A stretch of DNA of 64,000 bases, taken from positions 16,144,001-16,208,000 of the forward strand of contig CM076954.1 in assembly GCA_039566865.1 (NCBI GenBank). Reading direction: 5' to 3'. This document shows, one piece after another, positions 29,282 to 55,205 of the stretch. The notes below the pieces were generated by a model that made no database searches, was not told the origin of the DNA, and saw only the letters and a list, made by a program, of their open reading frames with translations. The stretch's first letter is position 1. Each line of letters begins with the position of its first letter. A program made the position numbers and the translations under genes. This DNA is from Aurelia coerulea (lineage: Eukaryota > Cnidaria > Scyphozoa > Semaeostomeae > Ulmaridae).

Positions 29282-29400
29282 TTACAACTGCACAGACATG
29301 AATCTGATTGAAGGCATATTTCAGGGACCTTGCAAAACAAGATTTGACTATAATCGCTCATAGTTATGAAACAGAAAGACCAACCAATGTCCACCAAGAA

Positions 29401-29476
29401 GGTGTTGTGGCGCAGTATGGTGTAATCCTCTGACTTTGCAGCCAAAGCAGTCAGGCGGTGTGGGTTCGATACCCGG
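29401..29476 (+). other. tRNA-like sequence fused to LINE
   Basis: GTGGCGCAGTATGGTGTAAT resembles a tRNA A box and D arm; GTGTGGGTTCGATACCCGG is a good B box and T arm (4 of 5 stem pairs). The anticodon arm is irregular and no acceptor stem closes. It is best read as a tRNA-derived SINE head or tRNA pseudogene. It joins the truncated LINE directly. Confidence 0.55.
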
Positions 29477-29483
29477 TAGAGTC

Positions 29484-30868
29484 TCAGTCAATATTGGGAA
29501 GGAGTACTCAAACTCTGGTAATTTGTCTTGTGGATTCTCCCAGGGATCAATTCTTGGTCCACTCATATTCCTCCTTTACGTGAATGACATGGCACGGGCT
29601 GTTGACTGTGACCTGCTTCTGTACGCAGATGATTCCTGCCTAATCTTTAGAGACACAGATATCGAACGTATTGAAAACAACTTGAATAGAAACTTTAACT
29701 CTCTCTGCGATTGGTTTGTTGAAAACAAGCTAAGTATTCACTTTGGCCAGGATAAAACGAAATCCATTCTTTTTGGACGAAAAAAATGCAAAAACCTAAT
29801 AAAGATGAACATTAGGAGGGGTGATATAGAAATCAAACAGCACTCAGTGGTTACATATCTCGGATCTGTTTTGGATGAGAATCTCTCTGGGGAGTCGATG
29901 GCAACCAAAATGCTTGAAAAAATAAATGGCAAGCTTAAATTCCTGTACAGAAAACAAAACTTTCTGGATTCCTCCCTTCGCAGGTTGCTTTTAAATGCTC
30001 TAATTCAACCTCATTTTGATTATGCATGCTTCGCATGGTATCCAATGTTGAATAAGAGACTGTCCAAAAAAATCCAGTCGGCCCAAAACAACTGCATCCG
30101 ATTTTATCTTAATTTAAAGAACAGAGCACACGTTGGGGCTACAGAATTCAAAGCTATAAACTGGCTCCCCACAAAGCACAGAGTAGATCAAAATATCTGT
30201 GTAAATATAATGAATTTTTTCAATGGAACTGCTCCAGCTTATGCTGACGAAATATTCCATCCAGCTGACCAAAGTCGAATAACGCGAAGGTCTAAGTTTA
30301 GACTAAACGTCCCATTTTGTAAGAGTAACACAGGCCAAAAATGTCTATCTTACCATGGGCCAAAAATATGGAACAGTCTCAAATCTGACTTGAAATCCAC
30401 CAATAATATCAACACGTTTAAACACAAGATCAAAGAAAATTTCTTCAAAAATATACAAAGAGAGGAAGATGACGTATATGTGTACTACTGACACCGCACA
30501 CCCTCTCTTATGCTCGATTCGGTATTGTACTATTCAAATCCATAAAGGCACAAATTAGCTACATTTTAACATCCTCAGGAATTTTCGTTTCTTCTATGAA
30601 AACTTTTCTTTTATTGACACCTTTGGAGGGACCATTATGGAAACAAGGTCACACTGACCTTTTAATGCTATCCCTGCCATTTTAACCAGGGGTGTTTTTA
30701 GATTAAATGTTTTTAACTCTTGTTTTTACTTACTATCACATGCCTGTAATTAGATTTTTCCATTTTGATAAACTTATTTTTATTTTAATGTTAATTTTTT
30801 TGGCGAATTTATACATACATACATACATACATACATACATACATACATACATACATACATACATACAT
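29484..30868 (+). pseudogene. 5'-truncated LINE (RT C-terminal half) with ATAC tail
   Basis: The ORF from about 29484 to 30491 encodes the second half of a non-LTR reverse transcriptase: QGSILGPLIF, then the Y-A-D-D active site (LLLYADDSCLIF), then the thumb and the usual FDYACFAWYP, AQNNCIRF and WNSLK motifs, ending DDVYVYY. The endonuclease and first RT blocks are missing. A 3' UTR of about 320 bp leads to (ATAC)n at 30811-30868, the microsatellite tail style of CR1/jockey-type LINEs. The 3' part is intact for 335 codons, so the insertion is not old. It cannot move itself. Confidence 0.88.
30811..30868 (+). repeat. (ATAC)n microsatellite
   Basis: About 14 units, forming the 3' tail of the LINE fragment. 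Confidence 0.95.
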
Positions 30869-38479: not shown

Positions 38480-38543
38480 GTGAAAATGCATTGTTCTGCT
38501 TGGATAGCTGTCCTCCTTCTTGGAGCATCAATAGCAGCTGTCA
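38480..38543 (+). CDS. Peptide precursor exon 1: signal peptide
   Basis: The exon follows a good acceptor (ATTTTGCAG, AG at 38478-38479), implying an intron in the 5' UTR. ATG is at 38486, six bases into the exon with AAAATG context. It codes MHCSAWIAVLLLGASIAAV and ends one base into the next codon at a consensus GTAAGT donor. A hydrophobic core with small residues before the junction is a typical secretory signal. A run of 17 G lies about 80 bp downstream in intron 1. The upstream UTR exon and promoter were not identified. Confidence 0.78.
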
Positions 38544-41500
38544 GTAAGTTCCTATAATGTTTATTTCATTTGAATTCTGTTTTTTTTTTCATATTTTTGA
38601 CATTTGAAGGGGCTGTGCAACCGGGGGGGGGGGGGGGGGTCAGTTTAATGTTGCTTTCTATAGCGGAATCTCGGCCTGCTTTTGATTTTACCCAGAGTCG
38701 CCATACAGGTCTTCATCAAGAATACAGCCTAGATACATCACTGAGGTGTGTTGTTTAATTTTGATGTCACCTCTTGTAATGTCCAGTTTCTTATTGGCGG
38801 TTCGTTTATTTGTTCTGCCAAAGAGTCAAGACTTTGTTTTGTCCTTCCAAAGTGAATGCTTAGTTTTTTATCAACAAACCAATCACAAAGGGAATTAATA
38901 TCTTGATTCAGTGAGTTGCCTTTCTATTTCATTGACGTTATGGTCACTGAATATAAGACGGGAGTCATCTGCATAAAAGGGAATTTCTCGGAGAATTTTG
39001 CGCGCTTCATGCAGCCTCGTTTGGAAAATTGCTTGGTTGAACACATTCACATGATGAGAACACTACACTTCGTGGTATTGACGTCAGTTCTGTTTGGATT
39101 TCACCACATATCCTGCATTGGGCTTGCCGAAGAACATATTTTCTGACTTTTATTCAGACTCTAGCTGATTTCTTTCATCGCGTATCTTCTATTGTTGGTA
39201 CTGGCTATTTCTTGAAGGTGTACTTGGTACTTGGTTCTATTGTTCTGGGTACCGACCACAATGGTGCTAGGTACTGGGCCTTCTGGTACCTAGTACTGCC
39301 CCCTTGGTACCGTTGTACATTTTCCCTGTCACCATCCTCAACATTGTGGGAGGATGGTGACAGGTAAAATGTACCATGGTACCAAGGTGCCAGTACCAGA
39401 TACTACAGGGGCCAGTACCCAGTACCAGTTAACCCCCTCCCCCTGTCACCATCCTCTTGTGAGACTTGACATAATCATGATCACAGTACTCGAGAGATGT
39501 CAAAATTACTTTTGTCAAGCAGATACTGAAATCAGACTCCAGCAACATAATTTCTAATGACAACCCCCTTAATTATTCAGGTCGCACCCGCCCGGTAGGG
39601 CACTCCCTCCATGGCTGGTAAAAACTCCGAGCTTGTCTGCCACCGCATGTCTCGTTTTATTTCTTGGATACATCTATTCAGTTCTGAAAACCTTGTTGAA
39701 TAAGAATAAGGTTAAACCATTACATTTTTATCCCTCCAGATGGCGAAAATGATCAAGCTGTGAAGGAAAATGATGTTTCTCCAGTAGATGGGGATGCCAA
39801 AGAATATGACGCAGAGGTCAGAGAAGAAAATTCTGCGTTGGAAGACCCAGGTAAGGGACTGTTCATTATTTATAGAGAGGTTGGTACCGAAGAGAAATGG
39901 GTTGAGTAAGAGAAATTTTCTAACATAAAAAGGTTGGGTGAATATTTTTTCATGTAATTTTAATGTTGGAAAACAAAATTTTCCCACCAATTAATACCAA
40001 ATGTTTAAAGTCCAAAATTATCTCAATATCATCATCAATATTATCAACATTACCCATTTCACTTTCAGTGTCTACTTTGCTCATCTTTGTCGTCAATATT
40101 TACAGTATTGAATTTACAATTTACATCGTTTGACATTGAAACCTTTTTTATAGGTAGGGGTAGGGAAACATTTTTTCAACCTGAAAATTGTTGGGTAGAT
40201 GTTTTTGCTGTCACTTTTAGAGTTGGGTAAGAAGATTCTTTGGACAAGAAAACATTTCTCTTCAGTACCAACCCCTCTGTAAATAATGAACAGTCCCTAA
40301 GCTTCATCAGTATTTTTTTGCAACCTGTTATCTTTTGGATAAAAACTACCAAAATCTGTGTTTTCTATTGTGCTTGCTGTAACAAGGACGGATTTGAGTT
40401 GCTTTGTAGGTTGTAGGTCTTAGGTTGTTTACCGTAGGATATAAAAATGCTCGGTTGCTCTGTTAAGTTTAGCTGAAGAAGATTTTTTAATCGAAATGTA
40501 CTGGAAATTTTTAACAGTGTTGTTTTTATACTTCTATTTTCTGTTACAAGATTGTGGTTTAGTTAATACAATAATAATGATAATTAATTAATGATAATAA
40601 TGCTAATAACAAATGTTGGTTAAGGGGCTGGAAATAAGGGGTCAGTCATTTATAGGGTACTGGGGTGGGCTAGAATTGCTAAACTAGCTAAAAGTTTTAT
40701 ACCCCTGTACGAAATACAAGGCCATGTAATAGCCATGTACAAGCCTTGTAGTTATGGCCTTGTAACTTTGTTATATATAGCCTGGAATGGCCTTGCTGTA
40801 ACCTTGTAAATGGCTTGAAAAATGCTAATTAGCCTTGTAGAAGCCTTGTGGAAACCTTGTGTTAGACTGGTTGCAGCTTGGAATCTTACTGATAGCCTTG
40901 TAATTTTCTTCCAAGGCTAGTGCAAGGTCATAACAAGGTCATAATCTCCTCTACAAGGCTAAAACGGCCTGTACAAGGCCAAGTTTAGCCTTGTATTTTT
41001 GTACAGGGCCCTTGCAATTTTCCCTAAAAAATTTCAAGCCCCATTGGAAAAACTAGAAAAAATGTCGTCTATCAAACTATTTTCAGATAACCACATCACA
41101 GAAGTTCTCTTTTTGTAAAAGAGATCAAAAATAGGAAAGGCAATGCCATTTGAACTTAATGGAAGTACTACCACGGAAGGCAAATGAGCTGGAATTTTAT
41201 ACAAATGCAATTGGGGTACAATGGATGATTTGAGGGCTGTCAGCTGGAGTTGCAGTTGTGCGAAGATATGGTATTCCATGGGCCTTGTTGTGTCATTGAA
41301 ATAATCTCCTAAAGAATGTTCCATGAAAGTTCTCGTACCCCCTCTAAAATTTCCAAAAAAGTTTCATACCCCCCATTTTCCTTGGAATAGTTTTCATACC
41401 CCCACCAATTCTAACCTGCCCCAGCACCCAAGAATTATAAATGACTGACCCCTAAAACCCTGTTGTCTATGATTAATCTAGATTAGTTTGAATTGGAATT

Positions 41501-44500
41501 TTGAATCCCCGTGTAGGCATAGCATCACTACATAAGGACCCTCTAGTTACGCTCATCTAATTGAGTTGAATTGTTGTTGTTGTTGTCGCTCCACTGAGGG
41601 CCTTATTTCCCTAGAGCTCAAGCTCTAATCTCCAATGCCACATAATCGAACCTTGTGGAGAATAGTGAAAAGGCCTGTATGAAAATATAAGGCCATGTAA
41701 TAGCCATGTACAAGCCTTGTAGTTATGGCCTTGTAACCTTGTTTTAGCCTGGAATGAGCCTTGTAGAAGCCTTGTGAAAACCTTGTATTAGACTGGTTGC
41801 AGCATGGGTAGTTAGACACTGCTGGTGTGCTTCTATGGAGAAGAGCTGGATAATATGTATCTGCGGGGGAAATTTTTTTACAGTACTGCGGAGGAGATAC
41901 CTGCGGGGGAAGTTTTTTATAGTACTGCGGAGGAGATATCTGCGGGGGAAATTTTTATAGTACTGCGGAAATAGTTTAATTAATATTTTCGTCCTTTCGA
42001 TATCTCCTCCGCAGTATTATGGTTGCAGCTTGGAATCTTACTGATAGCCTTGTAATTTTCTTGCAAGGCTAGTACTAGGTCATAACAAGGTCATAATCGC
42101 CTCTACAAGGCTCAAACTTGGCCTGTATAAGGCCAAGTTTAGCCTTGTATTTTTGTACAGGGGTCTATTGGTAGAATCAGTATGGAGATATTCCGTTTCT
42201 ACAAGCGTTGAGAAATGAGTAGAAACAGGGCTTATTATATTCAACGAAACGAAACGAAACCGAACGAAACCAATTCAATTTGGCTTTTTCCATTCCCAAG
42301 AGAACGAAACACATTGTTTTCAAATCACGAAATTGTTTTCAAATCTTTTGTGCTAAAATACTAAAGAATCATCAAAGAATCATAGGCCTAACAAGGAAAG
42401 AATCATCAACACACATACAACATTTGTCCAGAGATTCCTAATGCGCGAACACGTTCGTTGATGAATTTTGGTTGAATTGTATAGGTGATCTCACGAGAGA
42501 CATTGATTCATTTTAGACTGCGTTCACACGGTGCCGGCATTTTGAAAACGGTGAAAAATGTGACGGATAGGCCTTCCGTTCACACAATGCCGGCACATTG
42601 TGTTAGATTTTGATAACCTTGCGTCTCATGTGTCGATACCGATTTCAATTCGAAGGATGAGACAAGCGACGACAATCATTGTATATTTCATTATTCTTCA
42701 TATAGACATTCCAGTAAAGTTGACAAAAATCGGTGGTTGACAAAATCAGTAGTTGATTTCAATTCGATTCTCCCTTTAGTGGATCCCTTAGGAGCGAAAT
42801 ACTGTTTTCAAATCATGAGTTGTTTCGACTCATTCGTGCTGAAAGAACTCAAACAACATTTGTGTGAAAAAATTCCTAATACGCTAAACACGTCAGGTTG
42901 ATAGATTTTGGTGGAATTGTGTTGTTGGACTAGTATACCCCCTGCCTATGTAAATAGTCCGTCCTTAAGTATTCTTATTTACTCGTGTTCTGTTATTCAT
43001 TTATTCGGTTACAGTTCTCTAATAGTAAAGTCGCCAAATAAGAAGTCTCTCTTTGCAGCAATCTTTAGGCAACATTACTGTAACCGAATTAACATGGATG
43101 CGTCGAAAAGCAGTATTTTGTGTTTCACAGGAAACGGCGATGTTCAAGCCTTTTTAACCAAGGTAGAAATACATGCCGCACTGAAAGGATACACAGGAGA
43201 AAAGCTGGCTCAAGCGTTGGCAAGTAAACTAGAAGGGCCAGCGTTCGATGTTTACCTACGACTTTCAGCAGATGATAGAAAGGATCCAGAAAAATTAAAA
43301 GCTGAACTCGAAAAGGAATTTGAGAAAGGAAAACGAAACCGCGAAGAAGCACTGAGTGAATTGGCGAATAGGCCAAGAAAGGTAGGGGAATCTACGCAAA
43401 ATTATGCATATAAATTGCTGGAATTAGTCAAATTGGCCTACCCTTCATTTGACAACAAAACTTTGGAGGCTATTGCTAAAGACTATTTTGTTAAAGGGTT
43501 GCACCCAGATATGCAAGTTGCTTTGAAATCCCTTGAAAAGTTTGATAAAGCGGAAATCAGAACCATCGCAGACGAAACAACGCGCTTAGAATTGGCAGGA
43601 ATTCGTTCATTGTTGTCTGATGCTTCGAGCAACAAAGGAATCTTTGGTGCAGCTAATCCCTATGAGGAAAAGTCAATTGTTGATTCAATCGCTGACAAGG
43701 TGATAGAGAAATTGCAGGGCATTTCATTAAGCCCTGACGACGGGGGACCACGCAACGAAGTTAATTTTGCTGACAGAAACAGCGGCCGCGGTTTTAGGGC
43801 CCGTAATTTCAGAGCCCCAGGACGTGGCCGCTCAGTTTCTTCAAATGGGAAATCTAAACCACGCCAGATGCGATGCAGAACATGCCAAAGCACAGAACAT
43901 TTGTTCCGAAAATGTCCAACAAGATTTTGCCAGGCCTGTGGTGCGCGAGGCCATGATGCTTGGGATAAGAACTGCTCGAATTTCCAATGACTAGACGGCC
44001 CCGACATTTTGAATTTAGAGGACAATACCACTGGTGCGTCAACCGTCGTTTTAAAAGCCAAATTGGAAGGAGTTTTTAGCAACGTTTTGCTTGACTCAGG
44101 AGCAGCTGTATCAATTATTGACTCGAAAACTCTTGAAAATTTGAAACTCGCAGTAAAGATAAATGCTTCAAGTGAAACACTTACAGATGCCTCAGGTAAT
44201 AACATGAAAATAACCGGCTTTGTAACTCTAAACGTGAATATTTTTGGCCTAACGAAACCAGTTCTACAGAAGTTCCAAATTGTCGATTCTCATTCGCCTG
44301 TCAGCATATTATTAGGCAGAGACTTTTTGCAGAAATTTGGTCAAGTGACATTTGATTTTGCAAATAACCGTGTAAGGCTTGGCCCAGCCTGGATCAGGGG
44401 GGCTGAGATAAAAACACCCATACGTGTTCGGGTAGCTGAGAAAACCACCATTCCTGGTCGTTCCGAAAAATTTATCCAGGTCAAATGTGATACCAAAACG

Positions 44501-47500
44501 GCATTTTTAGAAGGAGATTTTGACCCTGCAACAATAGCAGGGATGACGGGTATCTACGCATCAAGAACACGGGTGATTCCAAATTCTGCGGGTGTTTTCA
44601 CGATCAGCCTGTTGAATGTTTCTGCTGAAGATATGATTTTGACTGCACGCAAACCAGTGGGAACATTATACGCTGCCGCAACGGGAAGTATCACACAAGG
44701 CCCAGTAAAAGATAATCCCTCGTTTGACTGCGGTACCCAACTTTCCGAAGAAGAAAAAACCACATTAATGTCCTTGATTTCTGACTACCAAGACATATTT
44801 GCGCAGAATCCAAAAAAGCCTCGGAGGAACAAAATCATAGAGCATAAAATCATTACAGATGACTCAATGCCCATTTATCAAAAGCCACGCCGTGTACCAA
44901 CCGCATGGGAACCAGAAATCAATTCCCAGATCATCGACATGCTGGACAATGACATCATAAGACCTTCTGAATCACCCTGGAATAGTCCTATCATTTTGGT
45001 TAAGAAAAAAGATAATACAACACGTTTTGTTTGCGATTTCCGAAAGTTAAATGATGTGACCAAAAAGACACCTACCCTTTGCCTCACATTAGGGACGTTA
45101 TTGATAAAATGGCTGGCGCAGTTTACTGGACAACTCTTGATGCAGCATCAGCCTATTGGTCTATGCCGTTGAAAGAAGAAGACAAAGAAAAAACTGCTTT
45201 CTCTGTTCCACGAGGAAAGTTTGAGTTCAACGTAACGCCGTACGGTTTATGTAATGCAGGAGCATCATACCAAAGATTAATGGACATTTGTCTCTCAGGG
45301 CTACCCGCCGAGCGAACGTTAGCGTACATGGATGATATTGCCATTTTTAGCAGAACCTTTGACGAGCATTTAAAGGACATCGAAGCAGTATTCAGCAGAT
45401 TGCGTAACACAGGCATCACATTGAAGCAATCAAAATGTGCATTTGCGAAAGAAAGCGTGGAATTTTTAGGATACGAATTGTCCATGGCTGGTATCAAACC
45501 ACAGAAACGTCTCACCGATGCGATACGTGATTTTGAACGCCCAACAACCAAGAAAGATTTGAAGCGTTTCCTAGGACTTGCAGGATTCTATCGAAATTTC
45601 ATAAAAGATTTTGCTGAAATCTCTAAGCCACTCAATAAACTCACCAGTGAACAAGTCGTGTATCAATGGGACCCGAGTTGCGAAAGAGCTTTCATTTCCC
45701 TGAAAAACGAATTGTGCTCAGAGCCCACGCTTGCCTTTCCACGATGTGGTGAACGATTTATTGTAGAAGTTGATGCAAGTGACGTGGCAGTAGGAGGCGT
45801 GCTTTCTCAAGTCCAGAATGATAACAGTATCCATCCTGTGGCCTATTTTTCCACCACGCTTTCAAAATGTCAACAGAAATGGTCTACCCACAGTAAAGAA
45901 GCCTTTGCCCTGCTGACAGCTGTACGAAATTGGCATGTCTATCTCGCTGGAACGGATTTTGTTTTGAACTCCGACCATAATCCGTTAGTTCACCTGCGCA
46001 ACCAGAGGGACCCTCGTGGAAAATTTGCAAGATGGTTATCAGAACTCGAAGAATACAGTTACACAGTCCAATACCTACCGGGGAAATTGAATGTGAAAGC
46101 AGATGCGCTGTCAAGGACACCTGGAGCTACAGCTAATACAGATCACTTCGATATGATTTTTGAAGATAAGGTGTATGCAATCAACCATACTGCCAAAGAC
46201 TTCAAAGAACAATTGGAAGCAGAACAAAATTCTGACCCAGTAGTAGGACCTGCTAAGCGTTTGATAACTGAAGGCAATACCATTCGGGAAGGACGCTTGA
46301 AACGAGTTTCCAGTCAATTAAGAATAGAAGATAACATCCTCACTAAGTCAGGAAGACCTATTTTGCCTGCTTCAATGAGACGCTTTGTGACACTCGCTAT
46401 TCATGAAATGGCCCACTTTGGCACTGATAAAACATATGCACTCCTTAAAGACCGATTTTATTGGCCCAATATGTACAAATTTGTTCACCGATTCATCGCC
46501 ACATGTTCGGTATGTCAACGCACTAAACGTGACACACAAGCGCCTAAAGCACCACTGTTGCCGTTGCACATCCCAGAGTCACCAATGGAATTTGTGTCCA
46601 TCGATATTGCAGTACTACCACCAGATGACAGCGGTTTCAAATACATGCTCCTGATCGGTGATGTCTTTTCAAAATACATAGAAGCAGTGCCCATGAAAGA
46701 TCAGCATGCCACAACAGTATGCCAAGCTTTCCGGGAATCATGGATCTTTAAACATGGATCCCCATACTTCCTTTTGTCTGATCAGGGATCAAACGTAGAT
46801 GGAAATTTGATTCATGAACTTTGCGAAATATTCAACATCGAAAAGAGGAGATCTTCCGCGTACCACAGTCAAGGTAATGGTTTTGCTGAACGTAACATTG
46901 GAAACATCAGAGAGGTATTACGTGCTTTGCTCCTCGATCGCGACTTATCTCAAAAGCAGTGGCGTCTCCTCCTACCAGAAGTGGTTTTCGCCTTAAACAC
47001 CAGTGAGAGCTCAGTCACGAAATGTACACCCTATTTCATAGTATTTGGAAGGAAACCAACATTGCCACAAGATCTCATTCTCGGCAGTAAGACCCCCCAA
47101 GCTACCGATATCGCAACAGCATCAGACTATGCAACAGAAACGAAAGTACGTCTCGCTGAAGTATATTACCACGTCGCGACAAGACTCGGTTTGAATCGCA
47201 CCCAGATGCAGAGACAGTACAATAGGAATATAAACTTCCATAATTATCAGAAGGGGGATAAGGTGTGGTTAAGAAGGAAGTATTTCAAAACTGGCGAAAC
47301 CCAGAAATTAGCTCCTCGAAGAAATGGCCCCTGGACCATTTTAGAGAAGCTTGCAAACGGTGTGAACTTTCGCATACAAAATGATTCGACAAAGAAAAAG
47401 CAAGTCGTTCATCATAATCGATTATACCCCGCCAAGATCATGGACACACCAGAGAATGCGCAACAAGACGACAAACAACAAAATGAAGGCGACATTGTGG

Positions 47501-50500
47501 CCCAAGAGATTCGGGACAAAATCAATGATACTTTTATAGACGAGGATTTTAGTAGCTCAGACGAATCGGACACTAACGCAGACGACCGTGAAGATCTGGG
47601 ACAGAATCGAAGGTACCCGATGAGAAATCGGAGACAGAGAACAATAGAAGGGAGCATTCCCTGGGACAGTATTAACGTTGTCGAACATCAAATCTTATAA
47701 AGGTGGGGAGGAATGTTGGACTAGTATACCCCCTGCCTATGTAAATAGTCCGTCCTTAAGTATTCTTATTTACTCGTGTTCTGTTATTCATTTATTCGGT
47801 TACAGTTCTCTAATAGTAAAGTCGCCAAATAAGAAGTCTCTCTTTGCAGCAATCTTTAGGCAACAGTGTAGGTGATCTCGAGAGAGAGAGATTCATACAT
47901 TCTTTTCATATATCATTCTTTTAGAGTTGTTTGTGCGTGCGTCTTCAATTGCTTTGACTTAGAGATAAGGAGTAGCTAGTACCAGTTTTCAGCGTTTTTC
48001 GAGATGAATCAGTTTAGAGTGCCATTTTCAATCCCGAAGTTACCGACACCTAAAGCTCCAGTTGACCCATCTCTTCCACGCTTCGATGAAAGGCATTTAA
48101 AGAAAGAAGAAGAAATTGGAACAGGTTCAAGGTTCGAGAAGAAGGCTCAACTTCGAACAATACCGCAATTTTAGGCCCAAAAAAGTAAGAAACTAATTAA
48201 GAAACTTTTACTACTAAAACACCGAAATTTTCATTCGAAATTAAGAAACTTTTAGTACCAAGTGCTGATCCAAGTTTCTTATAAAAAACGTGTAAGTGTA
48301 TTCGAGGGCTTACGGTATTGTCACGACCAAAAATTGGCAGGCTTCCTGTTATTCGATCAATATCAGCTCACTCACCAAAGAGACATCATATAGGCCTATC
48401 GCACACATTTCATTACTGTATTTTCATTAGTGTGCTGAAAGATCTGTCTGTTTTTTGCGTCCGTTTTTCTCCTAGTACCTATTATTTCATTACTGTATGC
48501 ATAGTGCATGCATCTTTGTCCAGTTCTTCTGACTTAGCCTGACGACCAGACCGGATTTCTCTGGCTATCAGGCTAATTCCGACGCCAATGAATTACTAAA
48601 TCACAAAAGGTTTGCACTCCGTAATATTTTCTTTCATGACATGGAAACAATTCGTTTCGTTCCCAGGAGAACGAAACGGTCGTTTCGTTCCTAGGAGAAC
48701 GAAACGGCTGCGTTTCGTTCTCTTGGGAATGAAACAAAAGCTAAAAACAATTCGTTTCGTTCTCGGCCAGGTCTATAACGCGGACCTCGCGGACCACGCG
48801 GACCTCGCGGACCAAGACCAAGGAGGTAAAATGGTCCGCGAAAAAAGGTCCGCGTTTTAGGATTTTGCATAGGGGCAAATCCTAAAGCGCGGACCTCGCG
48901 GACCTTTTTTTGTTTTAGTTCCTGCTTCCAACGCTGATTTGCAAATTCATCACGATGTTGTTTCTTGCCGAGATGAAAAAGATCTGTACTAATCACATTT
49001 CACTCCCAGTATGTGCAAGTCTCTCGTCGCCAGTTAGGGTCTGAAAAATCTTGGACGAAGCTAGTAAATGAAATATCAACACCAACGATATCCTGATTCA
49101 TTTCTTTACCTGTATACGTGGCATATTCGTAGTGATGCAATCCGAATCATCTCCAAGTAAAACCCGTTTCTCGCAATAGCCATGAGTTTGATATGACTTC
49201 CTCATTAGGCCTAAAAGCGGGCCTAAGCTTATCACCCCTCGGAAATCAATAACTCCATGTGCGAAATAAGATCGAAGTCCAATTTCACGAGAGCTGAGAA
49301 TTACGACTAGAGCACAATAATGTGAAAAGAAATGGCAAAAGACACGTTGGTTTTTCCTCTCCTGAAAGATTGGGGCCTGATAAACATACAATAAAAAAGT
49401 CCGCGAAAAAAAGGTCCGCGTTTTAGGATTTTGCATAGGGGCAAATCCTAAAGCGCGGACCTCGCGGACCTAAATAATTTTCTATCCTACATGCATGAGT
49501 AAATCCAATCATGAATGCGTGCTCAATTTTTATTATCCCCAATGTCGTATTTCTTGACATAGCTTCGCATTTCAAACCTTTTTGAGTGTATATTTCTCGA
49601 ACGAAATTTTTTTACTGCAAAGCGAATCGAAAAACCCCACACACTGCACATTTGAGACTACGACTACAGTGTGACTATTTTTCTCAATCAGTGAATTGTT
49701 ATCAGAATTTAAAACTGAAAAGTGAAAAATGAATTGAAAAAAAACCCCACACTGTCGTAGTTTCAAATGTGCATTGTGTGGGGTTTTTCGATTCGCTTTG
49801 CAGTAAAAATTTTTCGTTCGAGAAATATACACTCAAAAAGGTTTGAAATGCGAAGCTATGTCAAGAAATACGACATTGGGGATAATAAAAATTGAGCACG
49901 CATTCATGATTGGATTTACTCATGCATGTAGGATAGAAAATTATTTAGGTCCGCGAGGTCCGCGCTTTAGGATTTGCCCCTATGCAAAATCCTAAAACGC
50001 GGACCTTTTTTTCGCGGACTTTTTTATTGTATGTTTATCAGGCCCCAATCTTTCAGGAGAGGAAAAACCAACGTGTCTTTTGCCATTTCTTTTCACATTA
50101 TTGTGCTCTAGTGGTAATTCTCAGCTCTCGTGAAATTGGACTTCGATCTCATTTCGCACATGGTGTTATTGATTTCCGAGGGGTGATAAGCTTAGGCCCG
50201 CTTTTAGGCCTAATGAGGAAGTCATATCAAACTCATGGCTATTGCGAGAAACGGGTTTTACTTGGAGATGATTCGGATTGCATCACTACGAATATGCCAC
50301 GTATACAGGTAAAGAAATGAATCAGGATATCGTTGGTGTTGATATTTCATTTACTAGCTTCGTCCAAGATTTTTCAGACCCTAACTGGCGACGAGAGACT
50401 TGCACATACTGGGAGTGAAATGTGATTAGTACAGATCTTTTTCATCTCGGCAAGAAACAACATCGTGATGAATTTGCAAATCAGCGTTGGAAGCAGGAAC

Positions 50501-53500
50501 TAAAACAAAAAAAGGTCCGCGAGGTCCGTGCTTTAGGATTTGCCCCTATGCAAAATCCTAAAACGCGGACCTTTTTTCGCGGACCATTTTACCTCCTTGG
50601 TCTTGGTCCGCGAGGTCCGCGTGGTCCGCGAGGTCCGCGTTATAGACCTGGCCTTTCGTTCTCTTGGGAATGGAAAAAGCCAAATTGAATTGGTTTCGTT
50701 CGGTTTCGTTTCGTTTCGTTTCATTTCATTTCGTTTCATTTCGTTGAATATAATAAGCCTAGAAACAGCGCATGTCACACCCATCCTCCTTCCGACGCTG
50801 GCCAGAGATTAACCTCACTTTCGTAATTATTTTAGTTCTCCATAAATTAAAAAGGCTTTGATGAAACAGTATGCAGAGCAAGCAGTTTATTTCAACGTGA
50901 GAAAAGATAGGATATTTGTCGTTTAAAAGCAAAATCGAGAAATTTTTGAAAGAAGAAACCACCAAGGAGAACATAGGTAAGTTTTTCAAACCAAACATTA
51001 GAAATTAACTGCAACGGGGTGACTGCAATGTCGTCCATGTGTGGTCTAGTGGTTAAGACGCTTGCTTGCCCGGAAAGCATGAGATCCGTGGTTCGATTCC
51101 CGGCGGTGGTAAGCGATTTTTCTGATCATTCAAAATGTTTCCGTTTATACCGAAAAAATGTAGCCTAAAAAAGTAGAAATCCTGATTGCCCGCTAGCTGT
51201 TGAGTACTTATAGGATGTATGCATTATATAGCCTTGTGATTTCTGTCACCCATAGATAATTCAGATGAAGATGACACGGAACTTGATGATAATACAGAAG
51301 AGGATCTCGCGGATAATGCAGAAAAGGATGCAGGAAATCCAGGACAAGAAAATGATCCATTTCTATCCTTAATCATACGCCGCAGACGCCGCAGACGCCG
51401 AATAATTATAGTTAGGAGAAGTAAGTTGCCTATACTGGGTGATATTTTTAGTTGTTTTGTACCAGAGGGGGGTTTTCGGCCCCTGCTTTTTCTCCAAAAC
51501 TACAATAGATATAACAATAAGACCTGCCCCTATTATTTTTGAGATAAACGACCTTTAAAGTATGTGGAAAGTATGACGATTGCAATTAACTAGTCGCGTG
51601 ATTCGTTGCCAGGCAACCAAAACACAAAGGGAAATTCGAGATTATACCTTGTTAGCAAGACAAATTCTATCCATTTTTTTTCTCCAAATTTGGTTCAAAT
51701 AGCGGAAAATATGTCGTAAAATTCAAAATACATACTTTCAAAATTTGGTAGTCTTTATTTTTAGGACAATTAACTTTAAATTGGCTTTTTTCAAGCCCTG
51801 ATTTTCTTCCCAGTTTCTTGTAAGTTTCCTCATTTTATCTAGGGGACATCGTATATTTGAATGACGTGCTAAGATATTAAATTTTGCTGATGTCTGCTAA
51901 TATGAAAATCTATATCAAATGTCTCTATCGTAAAATTTTCGAGGAATGGAAACATAATGATTTGAATGTGCAATTAAAGGTAATGTGCCCATGTAAGTAC
52001 AGATGCATGATACTGCACTCTTGTCAAAATATGCTGACATGATGCTGATGAAGAGCCCTAAGAGCACGCTGTGATAGATTTGACGTCGGCTTATTTCATA
52101 TTAGACAGATTTGACAGCATAAGATGGATAAATTACCAAAATGTTTACCCTGATGCAACAACAAATTTAACCAGAATTGGCACGTTCTTGACTTCATTAG
52201 CAGCTTAATTATGTTAAAACAATCGTTTTCTAGAACGATCATATCATTAGCCACGTATTAATAGGACTCATTATGCAAATAAGTCAACTTTAGGGCATGA
52301 TGTAACGGGCCTGCACAGAGGTTAGCATTTACAGTACCACCGAAGGTAGAAGGACCTCCCTCCTACACAGCTACAGAAAGGTGCAGAATCCCAGCAAACA
52401 ATAGCGCCATTGACTGGGGGAAGGCACGTGATCAAATTGATTGAACCAAAACATCGTCATGCATATGATTCTGCACAGAGGTTATCTTCACGACTGCTTG
52501 TCTCAAATTAAATGCCCGCCAACAGCAACGATTGAAACGCTGTGCAAGGTTCTGCATAAGTAAGTAATTTTACGTTATCGAAAATGTCACATCTTGTCCT
52601 CAAACAAGGCGCTTGATGTTCTATCGAAGGTGACTTTTGGCAGCAACACTCATCTCTCTGAATGTAGCTAAAACAGCATCAACTATCATTTGGGGTTATG
52701 AAAAAATCAATATTCAGATATTCTTATGTTTGATTAACTCAGGACGGACTTTGTAATCATCCAAAAGGATCTTATGTTTGAATTGGCAAACGCAAGAGGT
52801 GATTTCAAGATGAACTGGACATTTCTACGGTAATCAACTCAAATGGTTAATTTGCATGGATCAGTGCCAAAACAGTTTCTAGTAAATTGGGCTGCGTCAC
52901 AATTGTCTAGTAAATTGGGCTGCGTCACAACGTTCCTTCTAGAACTTTCGTTGATCACATGACATCGAAAATAATTAGTGCAAATGGTTTGTTTTCCTGG
53001 TGCTCTGCCAAAAAAGTATCAGCAAATGCAGTGATCTGATGGTGCGGAGGCGCAGCAACAATACAGCAGTTGGCAACTGATTGCATTCTTGGCATTCTTA
53101 GCTGATTCGCGGAATGCGTTCTTGGTTCGTGAGTTAGTTAGTGACTGAGTGCGTTACACAACTCCACTCCTATATGTACTTGTTTTACATCGTACATAAA
53201 AAGTACCTACGATTTCACATATCAAATTTAGTTTACAAAGTAAAAACAAAAGATCCTTTTGGATGATTACAAAGTCCGTCCTGAGCTAAGCAAGCATAAG
53301 AAAATCTGAATATTGATTTCTTCATAACCCCAAATGATCTTTTATGCTGTTTTAGCTACAGTCAGAGAGATGAGTGTTGCTGCTAAAGTCGCCTTCAACA
53401 GAAAATCAAGCGCCTTGTATCGAGGGGCATTTCACTCCCAAAAAATCTCTACACCTTTGGCAAAAATCCTTTTGTGTCAAGAAAAATCCATCAAAAATCC

Positions 53501-54448
53501 GTAAAAATCCTTTTGTTCTGAAAAAATCTCGTACGCTTTTTCGAATGAGTGAAATGCCCCTCGCCTTGTATAAGGACAAGAATCGCCTGAAAAGCAATAT
53601 TTTGATCTTTATGTCAAACGAGGATGATACGCAAAAAATCAAAAGTCATTACCCCTAGTTTGCTTAGTCTCTGCATGAAACTATTGGTGCATCTGTGTCA
53701 TGTCAGATTTACGATAACGCAAAATTACTTATGTTTATGCAGAACCCTGCAGAACGTTTCTGTTCGTGGGCATCTAGTTTGAGACAAGCATTGACGAAAA
53801 TAACCTATGTGCAGAATCATATGCATGAAGATGTTTTGGTTTCGTGTGATCGCGTCCCTTCCCCCAGTCAATGGCGCCATTGTTTGCTGGGATTCTGCAC
53901 CTTTCCTCTCAACTTCACCTGCGATGCATCCATTTTTTCATTTCATTTTATTTTTTTCATTTTAACTTTTTTATTGCATCCGTTGCTGTGTAGGAGGGGG
54001 GTCCTTCTACCTTTGGTGATGCTGCGAATGCTAGCCTCTGTGCAGGCTGCCGGTTACATCATCCCCTAAAGTTGACTTATTTGCATAATGAATACTATCA
54101 ATAAGTGGCTAATGATGCGTTCGTTCTAGAAAACGATTGTTTTAACATAATTAAGATGCTAATGAATTCAAGAACGTGCCAATTCTGCGAAAATTTGTTG
54201 TTGTGCCAGGGTAAACATCAAGGTGATTTATCCATCTTATGGTGTCAAATCTGTCTAACATGAAATAAGCCGACGTCAAATGTTACTATCGGATCGCGGG
54301 AAACTTCTGTCTTGTATGCGCTTTCTGTGCGCTTTCTTTATTTCAGGGCCAATTAGCAGAGATAAAACGTTAATCAATTGCTTTAACGAGCGTGACGGAC
54401 TTTCCTTCTTTCTTTCCTTCTTTCTTTCTTTCCTTCTTTCTTTCTTTT

Positions 54449-54483
<35 letters not shown>

Positions 54484-55205
54484 GACTTTCTGACTGACCT
54501 GGAGCCCCCTCTTAGATTACAAAGTTGGACTTTGTAATAAAAAAAATGGCAGTTTTCTGCCACAAAAAACATGTCCATAAAAACTAGAAGTCAGTCGCAA
54601 CGTTGTAGCCCGGGGGGGGTACTCCCATTATGGCCTGACAGGGGGGTTCGGTCAGGGTTAAAGAGGGCCAAAGCAAAAAGCTTGAAAAATACCCTCAAAT
54701 GGTAGTATCTTTTTACAGAAACTCTCAAATGGTGGTTTGTGGACCTAAAATTGGGCCATTTGGTAGCATCTGGTAGCGAAAATTTTTAGCAGTTTTTCGA
54801 AATTTTCTATTGTAAAAACTGATTGAACAAAGCAAGAAAACTTTAAAATTCAGCGATAATTATTGCTGCAACGACCATATTGCCATGCAGAGGAGCCTAT
54901 AGAGTTTAAAGCTTATAACTGGCCAGGAATCTTGGAATACCCCCAATTGGTAGTAGGAGTTGACAAATAGGGCCATTTGGTAGCCATTTTGTAAGACCCT
55001 CAAACCGACTGGACCCCCCTGTTATGGTAAAAATCCACAAAAGAGAAACCACCAGGCTGCTGCATTTGATTCCTTTAATTTGCTCTTAGGACGTTGCATC
55101 CGACGTAGAAGTGCGTGCAGGAGAAGAACATACTTATACAGATGCCCTTCCTGGACAAGGAGAAGACTCACTTGCCGCCGCCGCCGTAGATGGTTCAAGA
55201 AATGA
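38480..55205 (+). CDS. Secreted acidic-pro / Arg-rich four-Cys peptide precursor (orphan)
   Basis: Four coding exons (38486-38543, 39740-39850, 51256-51420, 55090-55205) splice at GT/AG sites in phase 1 every time and total 450 bp: 149 residues plus TGA. Residues 1-19 are a signal peptide (WIAVLLLGASIAAV core). Residues 20-90 are a propiece with about 29 Asp/Glu and 4 Lys/Arg. After NDPFLSLII comes R98-R105, IIIV, then a basic tail with Cys at 114, 121, 130 and 140 (C-x6-C-x8-C-x9-C), ending RRRRRWFKK. Residues 98-149 hold about 27 Arg and 2 Lys with no acidic residue. The layout is that of host-defence prepropeptides whose acidic pro part masks a cationic mature peptide (hydra arminins are organised this way but lack this cysteine pattern). 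Function is inferred; the family is not recognised. A basic nuclear protein is less likely because of the signal peptide. Confidence 0.75.
39280..39413. repeat. Long hairpin in peptide-gene intron 1
   Basis: GTACATTTTCCCTGTCACC at the left pairs with GGTGACAGGTAAAATGTAC at the right (one mismatch) around a 10-base loop at 39340-39349; pairing extends outward through GGTACC-rich sequence. A third CCTGTCACCATCCTC follows at about 39443. Confidence 0.75.
39740..39850 (+). CDS. Peptide precursor exon 2: acidic propiece
   Basis: 111 bp, phase 1-1; acceptor TCCCTCCAG, donor GTAAGG. It adds residues 20-57: a hydrophilic Glu/Asp-rich stretch beginning NGENDQAVKENDVSP and ending SALEDP, with 13 acidic and 4 basic residues. 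It has no cysteine. Being symmetric it can be skipped or duplicated without a frame change. A minus-strand ORF over it is a shadow. Confidence 0.75.
40705..41009 (-). repeat. ACAAGG-rich repeat, copy 2
   Basis: Near-complete reverse-complement match to 28979-29281, in intron 2 of the peptide gene. Confidence 0.85.
41672..42165 (-). repeat. ACAAGG-rich repeat, copy 3, split by an insertion
   Basis: The two halves (41672-41803, 42021-42165) rejoin to match the other copies. GGTTGCAGC is present once in the others and twice here, flanking the 217-bp insert. Confidence 0.85.
41804..42020. mobile_element. 217-bp insert with 9-bp duplication
   Basis: Starts ATGGGTAGTTAGACACTGC, as does the palindromic MITE at 37318-37541. 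Inside are three direct units around GGAGGAGATATCTGCGGGGG and AGTACTGCGG. GGTTGCAGC flanks it at 41795-41803 and 42021-42029. Confidence 0.8.
42923..43074 (+). repeat. 5' LTR (152 bp)
   Basis: Starts TGTTGGAC and ends GGCAACA, identical by eye to the copy at 47714-47865. It is short for a Gypsy LTR. It contains ATTCGGTTACAGT (43003-43015), whose exact reverse complement is in the leader just after the LTR, which suggests the transcript begins at about 43003 and primes its own reverse transcription. Confidence 0.95.
43075..43093 (+). promoter_or_regulatory. 19-nt leader, putative self-priming site
   Basis: Between the LTR end and the gag ATG there are only 19 bases. Thirteen of them (ACTGTAACCGAAT, 43077-43089) are the exact reverse complement of LTR bases 43003-43015. 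No match to a tRNA 3' end (no TGG at the LTR border) is seen. This is the Tf1/sushi arrangement, in which the 5' end of the RNA folds back as primer. Confidence 0.75.
43094..43990 (+). CDS. gag: Gypsy gag (298 aa), ends at leaky-type UGA CUAG
   Basis: Starts at MDASKSSILCF; an upstream in-frame extension into the LTR is not needed. The first two thirds form a retrotransposon-gag helical domain (including YAYKLLELVKLAYPSFD and VKGLHPDMQ). An Arg/Gly-rich stretch follows, then two zinc knuckles: C261-x2-C-x4-H-x4-C274 and C279-x2-C-x4-H-x6-C294, the second with unusual H-C spacing. The TGA at 43988-43990 is followed by CTAG, and the frame stays open into protease, so gag-pol is probably made by readthrough. 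It would form the particle shell and bind RNA. Confidence 0.92.
   Translation: MDASKSSILCFTGNGDVQAFLTKVEIHAALKGYTGEKLAQALASKLEGPAFDVYLRLSADDRKDPEKLKAELEKEFEKGKRNREEALSELANRPRKVGESTQNYAYKLLELVKLAYPSFDNKTLEAIAKDYFVKGLHPDMQVALKSLEKFDKAEIRTIADETTRLELAGIRSLLSDASSNKGIFGAANPYEEKSIVDSIADKVIEKLQGISLSPDDGGPRNEVNFADRNSGRGFRARNFRAPGRGRSVSSNGKSKPRQMRCRTCQSTEHLFRKCPTRFCQACGARGHDAWDKNCSNFQ
43991..45066 (+). CDS. pol: Gypsy pol, first part: protease and RT N-terminus
   Basis: In the same frame as gag and directly after its stop, so no separate start is needed (the first Met is at 44009). The aspartic protease has LLDSGAAVSIID at about 44087 (catalytic D-S-G, Asp codon at 44093) and the ILLGRDFL flap-side motif near 44308. 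RT begins with the EHKI, PIYQKPRRVP and SPWNSPIILVKKKD segments and runs to VCDFRKLNDVTKK. The frame then departs from the expected RT sequence at about 45,066, and the rest of RT is found in frame 1. This is a one-base-class break inside RT, not at a usual frameshift junction. Confidence 0.9.
45067..47700 (+). CDS. pol: Gypsy pol, second part: RT, RNase H, integrase
   Basis: Frame 1, open to the stop at 47698-47700. RT active site Y-M-D-D is at 45325-45336. RNase H starts with VEVDASDVAVGG near 45766 and keeps SDHNPL and the KADALSR end. Integrase has an H-H-C-C finger (HEMAHFG ... CSVCQ) and the catalytic triad Asp 46603, Asp 46780, Glu 46888; the last two are spaced D-x35-E, the retroviral rule. 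A GPW motif lies in the C-terminal domain (RRNGPW). The tail is acidic and then basic (RRYPMRNRRQR) with no chromodomain. Apart from the upstream frame break every key residue is present. Confidence 0.92.
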   Translation, partial: DTYPLPHIRDVIDKMAGAVYWTTLDAASAYWSMPLKEEDKEKTAFSVPRGKFEFNVTPYGLCNAGASYQRLMDICLSGLPAERTLAYMDDIAIFSRTFDEHLKDIEAVFSRLRNTGITLKQSKCAFAKESVEFLGYELSMAGIKPQKRLTDAIRDFERPTTKKDLKRFLGLAGFYRNFIKDFAEISKPLNKLTSEQVVYQWDPSCERAFISLKNELCSEPTLAFPRCGERFIVEVDASDVAVGGVLSQVQNDNSIHPVAYFSTTLSKCQQKWSTHSKEAFALLTAVRNWHVYLAGTDFVLNSDHNPLVHLRNQRDPRGKFARWLSELEEYSYTVQYLPGKLNVKADALSRTPGATANTDHFDMIFEDKVYAINHTAKDFKEQLEAEQNSDPVVGPAKRLITEGNTIREGRLKRVSSQLRIEDNILTKSGRPILPASMRRFVTLAIHEMAHFGTDKTYALLKDRFYWPNMYKFVHRFIATCSVCQRTKRDTQAPKAPLLPLHIPESPMEFVSIDIAVLPPDDSGFKYMLLIGDVFSKYIEAVPMKDQHATTVCQAFRESWIFKHGSPYFLLSDQGSNVDGNLIHELCEIFNIEKRRSSAYHSQGNGFAERNIGNIREVLRALLLDRDLSQKQWRLLLPEVVFALNTSESSVTKCTPYFIVFGRKPTLPQDLILGSKTPQATDIATASDYATETKVRLAEVYYHVATRLGLNRTQMQRQYNRNINFHNYQKGDKVWLRRKYFKTGETQKLAPRRNGPWTILEKLANGVNFRIQNDSTKKKQVVHHNRLYPAKIMDTPENAQQDDKQQNEGDIVAQEIRDKINDTFIDEDFSSSDESDTNADDREDLGQNRRYPMRNRRQRTIEGSIPWDSINVVEHQIL
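47701..47713 (+). promoter_or_regulatory. Polypurine tract
   Basis: AGGTGGGGAGGAA directly follows the pol stop and abuts the 3' LTR. It is mostly purine, as expected for the plus-strand primer of an LTR retrotransposon. Confidence 0.85.
47714..47865 (+). repeat. 3' LTR (152 bp)
   Basis: Identical by eye to the 5' LTR at 42923-43074. It is followed by the GTGT target duplication at 47866-47869, then by sequence that continues the interrupted host element. Confidence 0.95.
49098..49436 (-). CDS. Mirror copy of the 112-codon ORF
   Basis: Same reading as the plus-strand ORF at 49982-50320 with Tyr instead of His near residue 57. It exists because the two palindrome arms are almost identical, so its conservation does not by itself show selection. 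Confidence 0.3.
   Translation of the reverse strand: MQNPKTRTFFSRTFLLYVYQAPIFQERKNQRVFCHFFSHYCALVVILSSREIGLRSYFAHGVIDFRGVISLGPLLGLMRKSYQTHGYCEKRVLLGDDSDCITTNMPRIQVKK
49982..50320 (+). CDS. 112-codon ORF of unknown function in palindrome arm
   Basis: Not recognised. It begins MQNPKTRTFFSRTF and its second half (VIDFRGVISLGPLLGLMRKS, then GYCEKRVLLGDDSDC) looks protein-like rather than low complexity. It is mirrored on the minus strand at 49098-49436 with one residue changed. A GTAAAG donor-like site lies near its end, so it could be an exon fragment captured by the element. Coding status is unproven. Confidence 0.3.
   Translation: MQNPKTRTFFSRTFLLYVYQAPIFQERKNQRVFCHFFSHYCALVVILSSREIGLRSHFAHGVIDFRGVISLGPLLGLMRKSYQTHGYCEKRVLLGDDSDCITTNMPRIQVKK
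51037..51113 (+). other. tRNA-like (SINE-type) sequence upstream of exon 3
   Basis: TGGTCTAGTGGTTAAGACG is a clear A box; the anticodon arm TGCTT-GCCCGGA-AAGCA pairs 5 bp but lacks U33; GTGGTTCGATTCCC is a B box with a weak stem. The acceptor stem does not close. A SINE head or tRNA pseudogene is more likely than a working tRNA gene. Confidence 0.5.
51256..51420 (+). CDS. Peptide precursor exon 3: acidic block then (Arg)8
   Basis: 165 bp, phase 1-1; acceptor CACCCATAG, donor GTAAGT. It codes residues 58-111: an acidic block (NSDEDDTELDDNTEEDLADN) switching sharply after NDPFLSLII to eight Arg (codons CGC/AGA), then IIIVRR. The charge switch within one exon marks the likely pro/mature border; the Arg run offers many dibasic or furin-type sites. 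Intron 2 before it is 11.4 kb and holds an 8.5-kb mobile element ending only 490 bp upstream of this exon. Confidence 0.75.
52078..54281. repeat. 2.2-kb imperfect palindrome in peptide-gene intron 3
   Basis: Arms end with ATTTGACGTCGGCTTATTTC and its complement and pair around about 53,180. Inner blocks include a CTTTGTAATCATCC segment and a GATGAGTGTTGCTGC segment in opposite orientations. Arms contain small differences and AT-rich inserts. The left side (51975 on) begins with TTAAAGGTAATGTG, the same end as the piggyBac-like element at 14085, so the palindrome may be an expanded member of that family. It lies wholly between exons 3 and 4. Confidence 0.82.
54402..54485 (+). repeat. (CTTT)n polypyrimidine tract in intron 3
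   Basis: About 80 bp of TTTC/TTCC units on the sense strand, 600 bp before the last peptide-gene exon. It could act as, or compete with, a splicing polypyrimidine tract; the minus-strand Lys/Glu-rich ORF is an artefact. Confidence 0.95.
54608..55023. mobile_element. Truncated G-run element in intron 3
   Basis: CCCGGGGGGGGTACTCCC start; the interior repeats an ATTTGGTAGC-type unit; the right side ends in GGACCCCCCTGTTATGG, an internal part of such elements. It ends about 65 bp before the last exon of the peptide gene. Confidence 0.65.
55090..55205 (+). CDS. Peptide precursor exon 4: Arg-rich four-Cys mature region
   Basis: Acceptor TGCTCTTAG (AG at 55088-55089); the first two bases finish an Arg codon. 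Residues 113-149 read RCIRRRSACRRRTYLYRC then PSWTRRRLTC and RRRRRWFKK, then TGA at 55203-55205. A longer ORF in another frame (55111-55323) is not compatible with the phase-1 donor of exon 3. No AATAAA was seen in the roughly 170 bases after the stop. The exon lies between a truncated G-run element and a partial MITE, and between two large palindromes. Confidence 0.78.

What the first reader, a model, noticed from the sequence alone, without database searches (positions are those of the whole stretch)
38480..55205. Undescribed secreted Arg-rich four-cysteine peptide gene
Four widely spaced exons splice to exactly 150 codons: signal peptide, acidic propiece, then a basic peptide with eight Arg in a row and C-x6-C-x8-C-x9-C, ending RRRRRWFKK. 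I know no family with this cysteine spacing and charge layout. It is hidden because each exon is short and the ORF in the last exon that looks longest is the wrong frame. A host-defence (antimicrobial) role is inferred from the layout only.
Basis: partly seen in the sequence, partly recalled or inferred. Interest (0 to 1): 0.92.

Follow-up and report, generated by a model that had tools for sequence, protein, structure and literature searches.

The report
Jellyfish peptide with caged arginine tail
A predicted four-exon gene, likely from a moon-jelly relative, encodes a predicted secreted protein whose acidic front part (29 negative residues) likely neutralises an arginine-rich, four-cysteine tail (29 positive residues, none negative) that would act as an antimicrobial peptide; the searches run matched it to no named peptide family.

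Summary
Four GT-AG exons splice to 149 codons plus stop: signal-like N-terminus, acidic propiece (29 acidic, 4 basic), then a 58-residue tail with 29 basic and no acidic residues, Arg8 and C-x6-C-x8-C-x9-C. The gene is more than chance. One relative was found among 5.77 billion proteins (P0002, probably Aurelia), and the host genome holds one paralog, B, with 6 of 6 splice sites conserved. Exons 1-3 have no frame-breaking indel where the noncoding rate predicts 5.4 (P=0.005).

The tail is less secure. It is the reading in phase with exon 3, and exon 4 is the only one of 562 acceptor-like sites whose in-phase continuation is at least half Arg/Lys over 30 or more residues. But B stops inside exon 3 after a shorter Cys-free Arg/Ser tail and has a one-base deletion in exon 4. 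P0002 is the ortholog of B, not of this copy, and is annotated in another frame. Exons diverge as fast as introns.

Best reading: a lineage-restricted precursor whose acidic propiece cages a polycation, built like Hydra arminins and periculins but not shown related. The antimicrobial role is inferred; no transcript was available.

The parts
38480..38543 (+). Exon 1: 6 nt 5' of the ATG, then the start codon at 38486 and the signal-like sequence MHCSAWIAVLLLGASIAAV; donor GTAAGT. The AG just before 38480 may end a 5' UTR intron (not tested).
   Evidence: hydrophobic core (8-residue mean hydropathy up to 2.9) in both copies; paralog exon 1 aligned, with a 1-nt indel lying 5' of the ATG
39740..39850 (+). 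Exon 2: last signal residues (NG) and first part of the acidic propiece
   Evidence: paralog exon 2 differs by one in-frame 9-nt indel
51256..51420 (+). Exon 3: rest of the acidic propiece (to 51359) and start of the cationic tail, FLSLII-Arg8-IIIVRRR (from 51360)
   Evidence: P0002 matches up to ENDPF
51378..51401 (+). Eight consecutive arginine codons (residues 98-105), a CGCCGCAGA repeat
55090..55205 (+). Exon 4: cationic four-Cys end of the tail, (R)RCIRRRSACRRRTYLYRCPSWTRRRLTCRRRRRWFKK, stop TGA 55203-55205
   Evidence: the same acceptor lies in paralog B and is where the matching part of P0002's tail begins
39851..51255 (+). Intron 2 (11.4 kb), carrying an LTR-retrotransposon-like insertion at 42923-47865 and a 900-nt inverted repeat pair

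Best explanation
This is a predicted secreted peptide precursor, likely from a moon-jelly relative, whose acidic propiece (29 D/E, 4 K/R) likely cages an arginine-rich four-cysteine tail (29 K/R, no D/E) that would be cut free on secretion to bind and disrupt microbial membranes. Shown: the exon chain, the frame constraint on exons 1-3, the charge split, one paralog (B) with the same signal and propiece but a shorter Arg/Ser tail, and one annotated relative that is the ortholog of B. Inferred: that the Arg-rich frame of exon 4 is the one translated, that the propiece neutralises the tail in the secretory pathway, that a basic-site protease releases it after transit, that the four cysteines form two disulfides, and that the released polycation acts on bacterial surfaces. 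The tail holds many possible basic cleavage sites, so its exact mature form is open.
For: Gene: GT-AG chain with one open frame; homolog E 4.9e-31; paralog at G000:C12:5669541-5684484 with 6 of 6 splice sites conserved; 70 of 89 aligned signal and propiece residues identical between the copies; 0 frame-breaking indels in 269 nt of exons 1-3 against 5.4 expected from 24 such events in 1204 noncoding nt (P=0.005). Tail: the frame entering exon 4 is fixed by the conserved propiece; exon 4 is the only one of 562 acceptor-like sites in the window giving a continuation of 30 or more residues that is at least 50% R/K; exon-4 Arg-frame comparison with B over 26 of 37 codons: Ks 0.241, Ka 0.072, 4 synonymous and 4 nonsynonymous changed codons, against 1/7 and 3/5 in the other two frames. 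Both copies turn strongly basic directly after the propiece in the same frame (A: Arg8; B: RRRRSRRRRSKRS). Charge: -25 against +29. Precedent: Hydra AMP precursors have a signal peptide, a bipartite charge split and often a complex Cys pattern, and are taxonomically restricted (PMC10945409, section 3 and passages); arminins have a conserved anionic N-terminal part and a poorly conserved cationic C-terminal part (PMC4820302, passages), which is the pattern of A against B.
Against: No transcript or peptide was available. Exons diverge between A and B as much as noncoding DNA (10.8-13.1% against 10.4-13.0%); Ka/Ks of signal plus propiece is about 0.54 and not significant (P=0.10; 0.033 with the exon-4 blocks added). 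In B the tail is not kept: a stop in exon 3, 10 nt before the junction, and a 1-nt deletion in exon 4. The only annotated relative reads exon 4 in another frame. The exon-4 sequence is purine-rich, so roughly one frame in three would look Arg-rich; the Arg share alone is weaker evidence than it looks. No NF-kB-type site in 2 kb upstream of either copy, and no AATAAA within 1 kb after the window copy's stop (ATTAAA at 971 nt; 8 hexamers scanned). Only two genes in this genome, whereas Hydra AMPs come in many paralogs. AlphaFold2 of the exon-4 peptide gave no confident fold (pLDDT 66.9, pTM 0.25).
Confidence: 0.5

Rival explanations
1. A real secreted precursor with a charge-caged polycation, but the tail's job is to condense or bind polyanions (extracellular DNA, mucus, or the polyanionic matrix of stinging capsules) rather than to kill microbes.
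For: Same anatomy as the best explanation; Arg8 and Arg-rich tails bind polyanions generally (recalled); no immune-type promoter site found; copy B's Arg/Ser tail has no Cys.
Against: The pattern of signal peptide, acidic part and Cys-bearing cationic part is described for cnidarian AMPs; no link to stinging capsules was tested.
Confidence: 0.24
2. The gene is real but decaying or under little constraint at its 3' end: the propiece is kept while the tail is drifting, so the Arg-rich reading of exon 4 in this copy is a leftover or an accident of a purine-rich sequence.
For: Exon and noncoding divergence are equal; B's tail is cut by a stop and a 1-nt deletion; the exon-3 tail could be aligned between the copies only with many gaps.
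Against: No stop or frameshift in copy A over 149 codons; the tail has 0 acidic residues in 58; 1 of 562 acceptor-like sites gives such a tail; 4 of 8 changed exon-4 codons are silent in the Arg frame.
Confidence: 0.14
3. Exon 4 is read in the frame annotated for P0002 (…DLASDVGVEQEKN…), giving an acidic protein with a near-neutral tail.
For: P0002 is so annotated, and B's exon 4 is open in that frame for 46 residues at 93% identity to P0002.
Against: Reaching that frame in B needs a donor GAA|GTTGGG in place of the GTAAGT donor present in both copies; the window copy has no matching segment, and there P0002's tail matches are split over two frames with a stop inside the second.
Confidence: 0.09
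4. A sperm nuclear basic (protamine-like) protein rather than a secreted one.
For: Arg runs with cysteines resemble mammalian protamines (recalled).
Against: Signal-like hydrophobic N-terminus in both copies and in P0002, and a long acidic propiece; hydrozoan cnidarians are stated to lack protamines (PMC9903204, start of abstract in a search listing only); no PDB or Pfam match.
Confidence: 0.03

Closest known systems
Hydra arminins
   Same: Signal peptide, conserved anionic N-terminal part, poorly conserved cationic C-terminal part (PMC4820302 passages)
   Different: The window tail has four Cys, Arg8 and +29 charge; arminins lack this Cys pattern (recalled) and are stated to be confined to Hydra (PMC10945409); no Hydra protein was listed at E up to 10
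Hydra periculins
   Same: Small size, signal peptide, bipartite charge, Cys-rich cationic part (PMC10945409, legend and text)
   Different: Different Cys pattern (periculins have more Cys, recalled); periculins come as 21-28 clustered paralogs in two Hydra species, here two genes 10.5 Mb apart on one contig; no sequence match
Aurelin (Aurelia aurita)
   Same: Cationic Cys-bearing peptide from a moon jelly; described as the only AMP isolated from a scyphozoan (PMC12194522 passages)
   Different: Aurelin is a 40-residue ShK/defensin-like peptide with six Cys (length from PMC4820302; Cys count and fold recalled); no ShK domain was reported by Pfam for the window protein
P0002, eukprot Seg961.3 (GoldUCD / D3Y31), hypothetical protein
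   Same: Signal and propiece 72% identical over 93 aligned columns; the same exon-4 acceptor
   Different: Ortholog of paralog B; annotated tail in another frame, 5 basic and 7 acidic residues

Membership tests
Charge-bipartite cnidarian AMP precursors (works-like class) | Signal peptide followed by segregated acidic and basic parts | tested here: met
   Hydrophobic N-terminus; 29 acidic/4 basic then 0 acidic/29 basic. No dedicated signal-peptide predictor was run.
Charge-bipartite cnidarian AMP precursors (works-like class) | Antibacterial activity of the released cationic part | not testable with these tools
   Needs peptide assays
Charge-bipartite cnidarian AMP precursors (works-like class) | Taxonomically restricted gene | tested here: met
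   One relative among 5.77 billion proteins at E up to 10; sensitivity is limited to shared 5-residue words
Charge-bipartite cnidarian AMP precursors (works-like class) | Multiple, often clustered paralogs | tested here: not met
   Two genes only, 10.5 Mb apart on contig C12; the search reports only its best candidates
Arminin | Conserved anionic N-terminal part with a variable cationic C-terminal part | tested here: met
   A against B: 70 of 89 residues identical in signal plus propiece; tails differ
Arminin | Sequence relationship to Hydra arminins | tested here: inconclusive
   No Hydra protein returned, but no arminin sequence was compared directly
Periculin | Periculin Cys pattern in the cationic part | tested here: not met
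   Four tail Cys, C-x6-C-x8-C-x9-C, against more Cys in periculins (recalled, not from a call)
Aurelin / ShK domain | ShK-type domain with six Cys | tested here: not met
   Four tail Cys; Pfam reported only a sub-threshold CDC45 match
Protamine | Nuclear protein without a secretory signal | tested here: not met
   Signal-like N-terminus in A, B and P0002

The most novel reading that the evidence does not exclude
The first charge-caged polycation family of scyphozoan jellyfish: a propiece whose 29 acidic residues match the 29 basic residues of a natural octa-arginine, four-cysteine tail one to one, in a two-gene family whose second copy has swapped its tail, by a stop codon at the exon 3 end, for a short Cys-free Arg/Ser cation. 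The acidic cage is kept and the weapon is replaced.
Probability: 0.35. Interest if true: 0.68.

Novelty: new variant of a known kind. Interest (0 to 1): 0.5.

Why it matters
A 2025 review calls aurelin the only antimicrobial peptide so far isolated from scyphozoan tissue (PMC12194522, passages). If this gene works as inferred, moon jellies carry a second, unrelated class built on the same charge-caging plan as Hydra's lineage-restricted AMPs, which would suggest that plan was invented more than once in cnidarians. The A/B pair also offers a direct test of how an acidic propiece tracks a changing tail: 25 acidic residues remain in B, whose tail has only 10 basic ones.

Tried and rejected
Pfam, NCBIfam and PDB sequence searches gave only sub-threshold or compositional matches. 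A mature-region search scored 7981 candidates, none at E up to 10. IMG/VR scan: 87 pattern matches, none a relative. AlphaFold2 of the 37-residue exon-4 peptide was too weak to use, so no fold search was run. NF-kB-type sites upstream: none in either copy. A first frame test, made by back-translating P0002 against the window (at least 4 of 5 visible changes silent in the Arg frame, P=0.02), assumed that P0002 was an ortholog of the window copy. Once B was found the test was replaced by real DNA, where the count is 4 silent to 4 changed, so the earlier P value should not be used. The idea that P0002's frame changes were assembly errors was dropped, because B in this genome carries the same one-base difference. 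Protamine reading: see rivals.

Not done: no dedicated signal-peptide, splice-site or proprotein-cleavage predictor; no check of P0002's own DNA; no identification of the window's species by name.

Full report
Observation. Residues 1-21 form a hydrophobic signal-like sequence. Residues 22-91 hold 29 acidic and 4 basic residues; residues 92-149 hold 29 basic and no acidic residues. Arg8 begins at residue 98 and the tail cysteines lie at 114, 121, 130 and 140.

Is it a gene? A search of 5.77 billion proteins returned one relative, P0002, E 4.9e-31. A repeat with the two-sequence alignment returned only P0002 again, and a search with residues 90-149 alone scored 7981 candidates with none at E up to 10. 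P0002 carries the label Seg961.3 / GoldUCD / D3Y31. I take it to be the Aurelia genome of Gold et al. 2019: this rests partly on recall, helped by PMC6909153 (passages), which lists REGM00000000 as an Aurelia genome and cites that paper, and PMC13157608 (passages), which names PRJNA490213 as the Gold genome. No call states the link between the label and Aurelia outright.

The window's own genome (574 Mb, 294 contigs, no name given) was searched with P0001 and P0002. With P0001, 7 of 9 rows are exons of two genes, the window copy (A) and a paralog (B) 10.5 Mb away on the same contig; with P0002, 8 of 11 rows are. The other rows have E 0.12 or worse and 2.48 or worse. B has the same four-exon layout with 6 of 6 splice sites conserved. 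P0002 is closer to B (85-95% identity by exon; 4 differences in the first 92 residues) than to A (60-75% by exon), so P0002 is the ortholog of B. A and B agree at 70 of 89 aligned signal and propiece residues.

Constraint. In six alignable noncoding stretches (1204 ungapped nt) A and B differ by 29 indels, 24 of them not multiples of three. In 269 nt of exons 1-3 up to DPF there is no frame-breaking indel where 5.4 are expected (P=0.005), and one in-frame 9-nt indel. The rest of exon 3 and exon 4 were left out of that count; there the frame is not kept in B. A random set of 33 substitutions would leave the frame free of stops with probability 0.29, so that alone is weak. Against constraint: substitutions are as frequent in exons (10.8-13.1%) as in noncoding DNA (10.4-13.0%). 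Ka/Ks is about 0.54 for signal plus propiece (89 of 92 codons; P=0.10), and with 26 of 37 exon-4 codons added the excess of silent change has P=0.033. The exons 1-3 frame is therefore constrained, but the protein evolves fast.

The tail. The frame entering exon 4 is fixed by the conserved propiece and the exon lengths. Of 562 acceptor-like sites in the window, exon 4 is the only one giving a continuation of at least 30 residues that is at least half Arg/Lys; 5 of 562 reach a net charge of +18, the other four being much longer and more dilute. Between A and B, 4 of 8 changed exon-4 codons are silent in the Arg frame, against 1 of 8 and 3 of 8 in the other two: suggestive, not decisive. In B the tail is different. 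With the GTAAGT donor present in both copies, B ends in exon 3 as FIGSLFEVGRRRRSRRRRSKRS, 10 nt before the junction (110 residues in all; 10 basic, 1 acidic, no Cys in the tail), and its exon 4 lacks one base relative to A. The annotated P0002 tail corresponds to B read from a GAA|GTTGGG donor that removes the Arg run. Both copies turn basic directly after the propiece in the same frame, which I count as the best evidence that a cationic tail is the point of the gene.

Mechanism. The likeliest reading is a secreted precursor in which the acidic propiece neutralises the polycation during synthesis and storage; a protease cutting at basic sites then frees the tail, which binds anionic microbial surfaces. 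Shown: anatomy, charge split, homology. Inferred: secretion, processing, disulfides, target. Hydra AMPs share this plan and are taxonomically restricted (PMC10945409, section 3 read and passages; PMC4820302, passages). Membership in arminins, periculins or the aurelin family is not supported, so this is filed as working like them, not as one of them. I rate the gene as real at about 0.95, the Arg-frame tail as translated at about 0.8, and the antimicrobial role overall at 0.5.

Novelty. Searches for arginine-rich, acidic-propeptide or four-cysteine scyphozoan peptides and for Seg961 in the held papers gave no description of this gene in the listings seen; the library lacks most subscription papers. 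The kind is known in Hydra; the cysteine spacing, the octa-arginine and the A/B tail switch were not found described there.

Noticed in passing
42923-47865: LTR-retrotransposon-like insertion inside intron 2: identical 152-nt direct repeats (TGTTGG...GCAACA) at both ends, GTGT on both flanks, gag-pol-like open frames between; identical repeats suggest a recent insertion.
   Followed up: partly
48765-49664 and 49754-50653: 900-nt inverted repeat pair, 99% complementary, 89 nt apart, also in intron 2.
   Followed up: no
51035-51110: tRNA-like promoter-box sequence (GGTCTAGTGGTTAAGACG...GGTTCGATTCC) about 150 nt before exon 3, not called as a tRNA by ARAGORN; it looks like a tRNA-derived short interspersed element.
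   Followed up: partly
29370-30491: 373-residue open frame that looks like the end of a non-LTR reverse transcriptase (motif FADD-like YADDSCLIF; recalled, no family search run).
   Followed up: no
G000:C12:5669541-5684484 (L009-L010): Paralog B keeps 25 acidic propiece residues with only 10 basic tail residues; its exon 4 still holds an open Arg-rich stretch ending in the same stop after a one-base deletion.
   Followed up: yes
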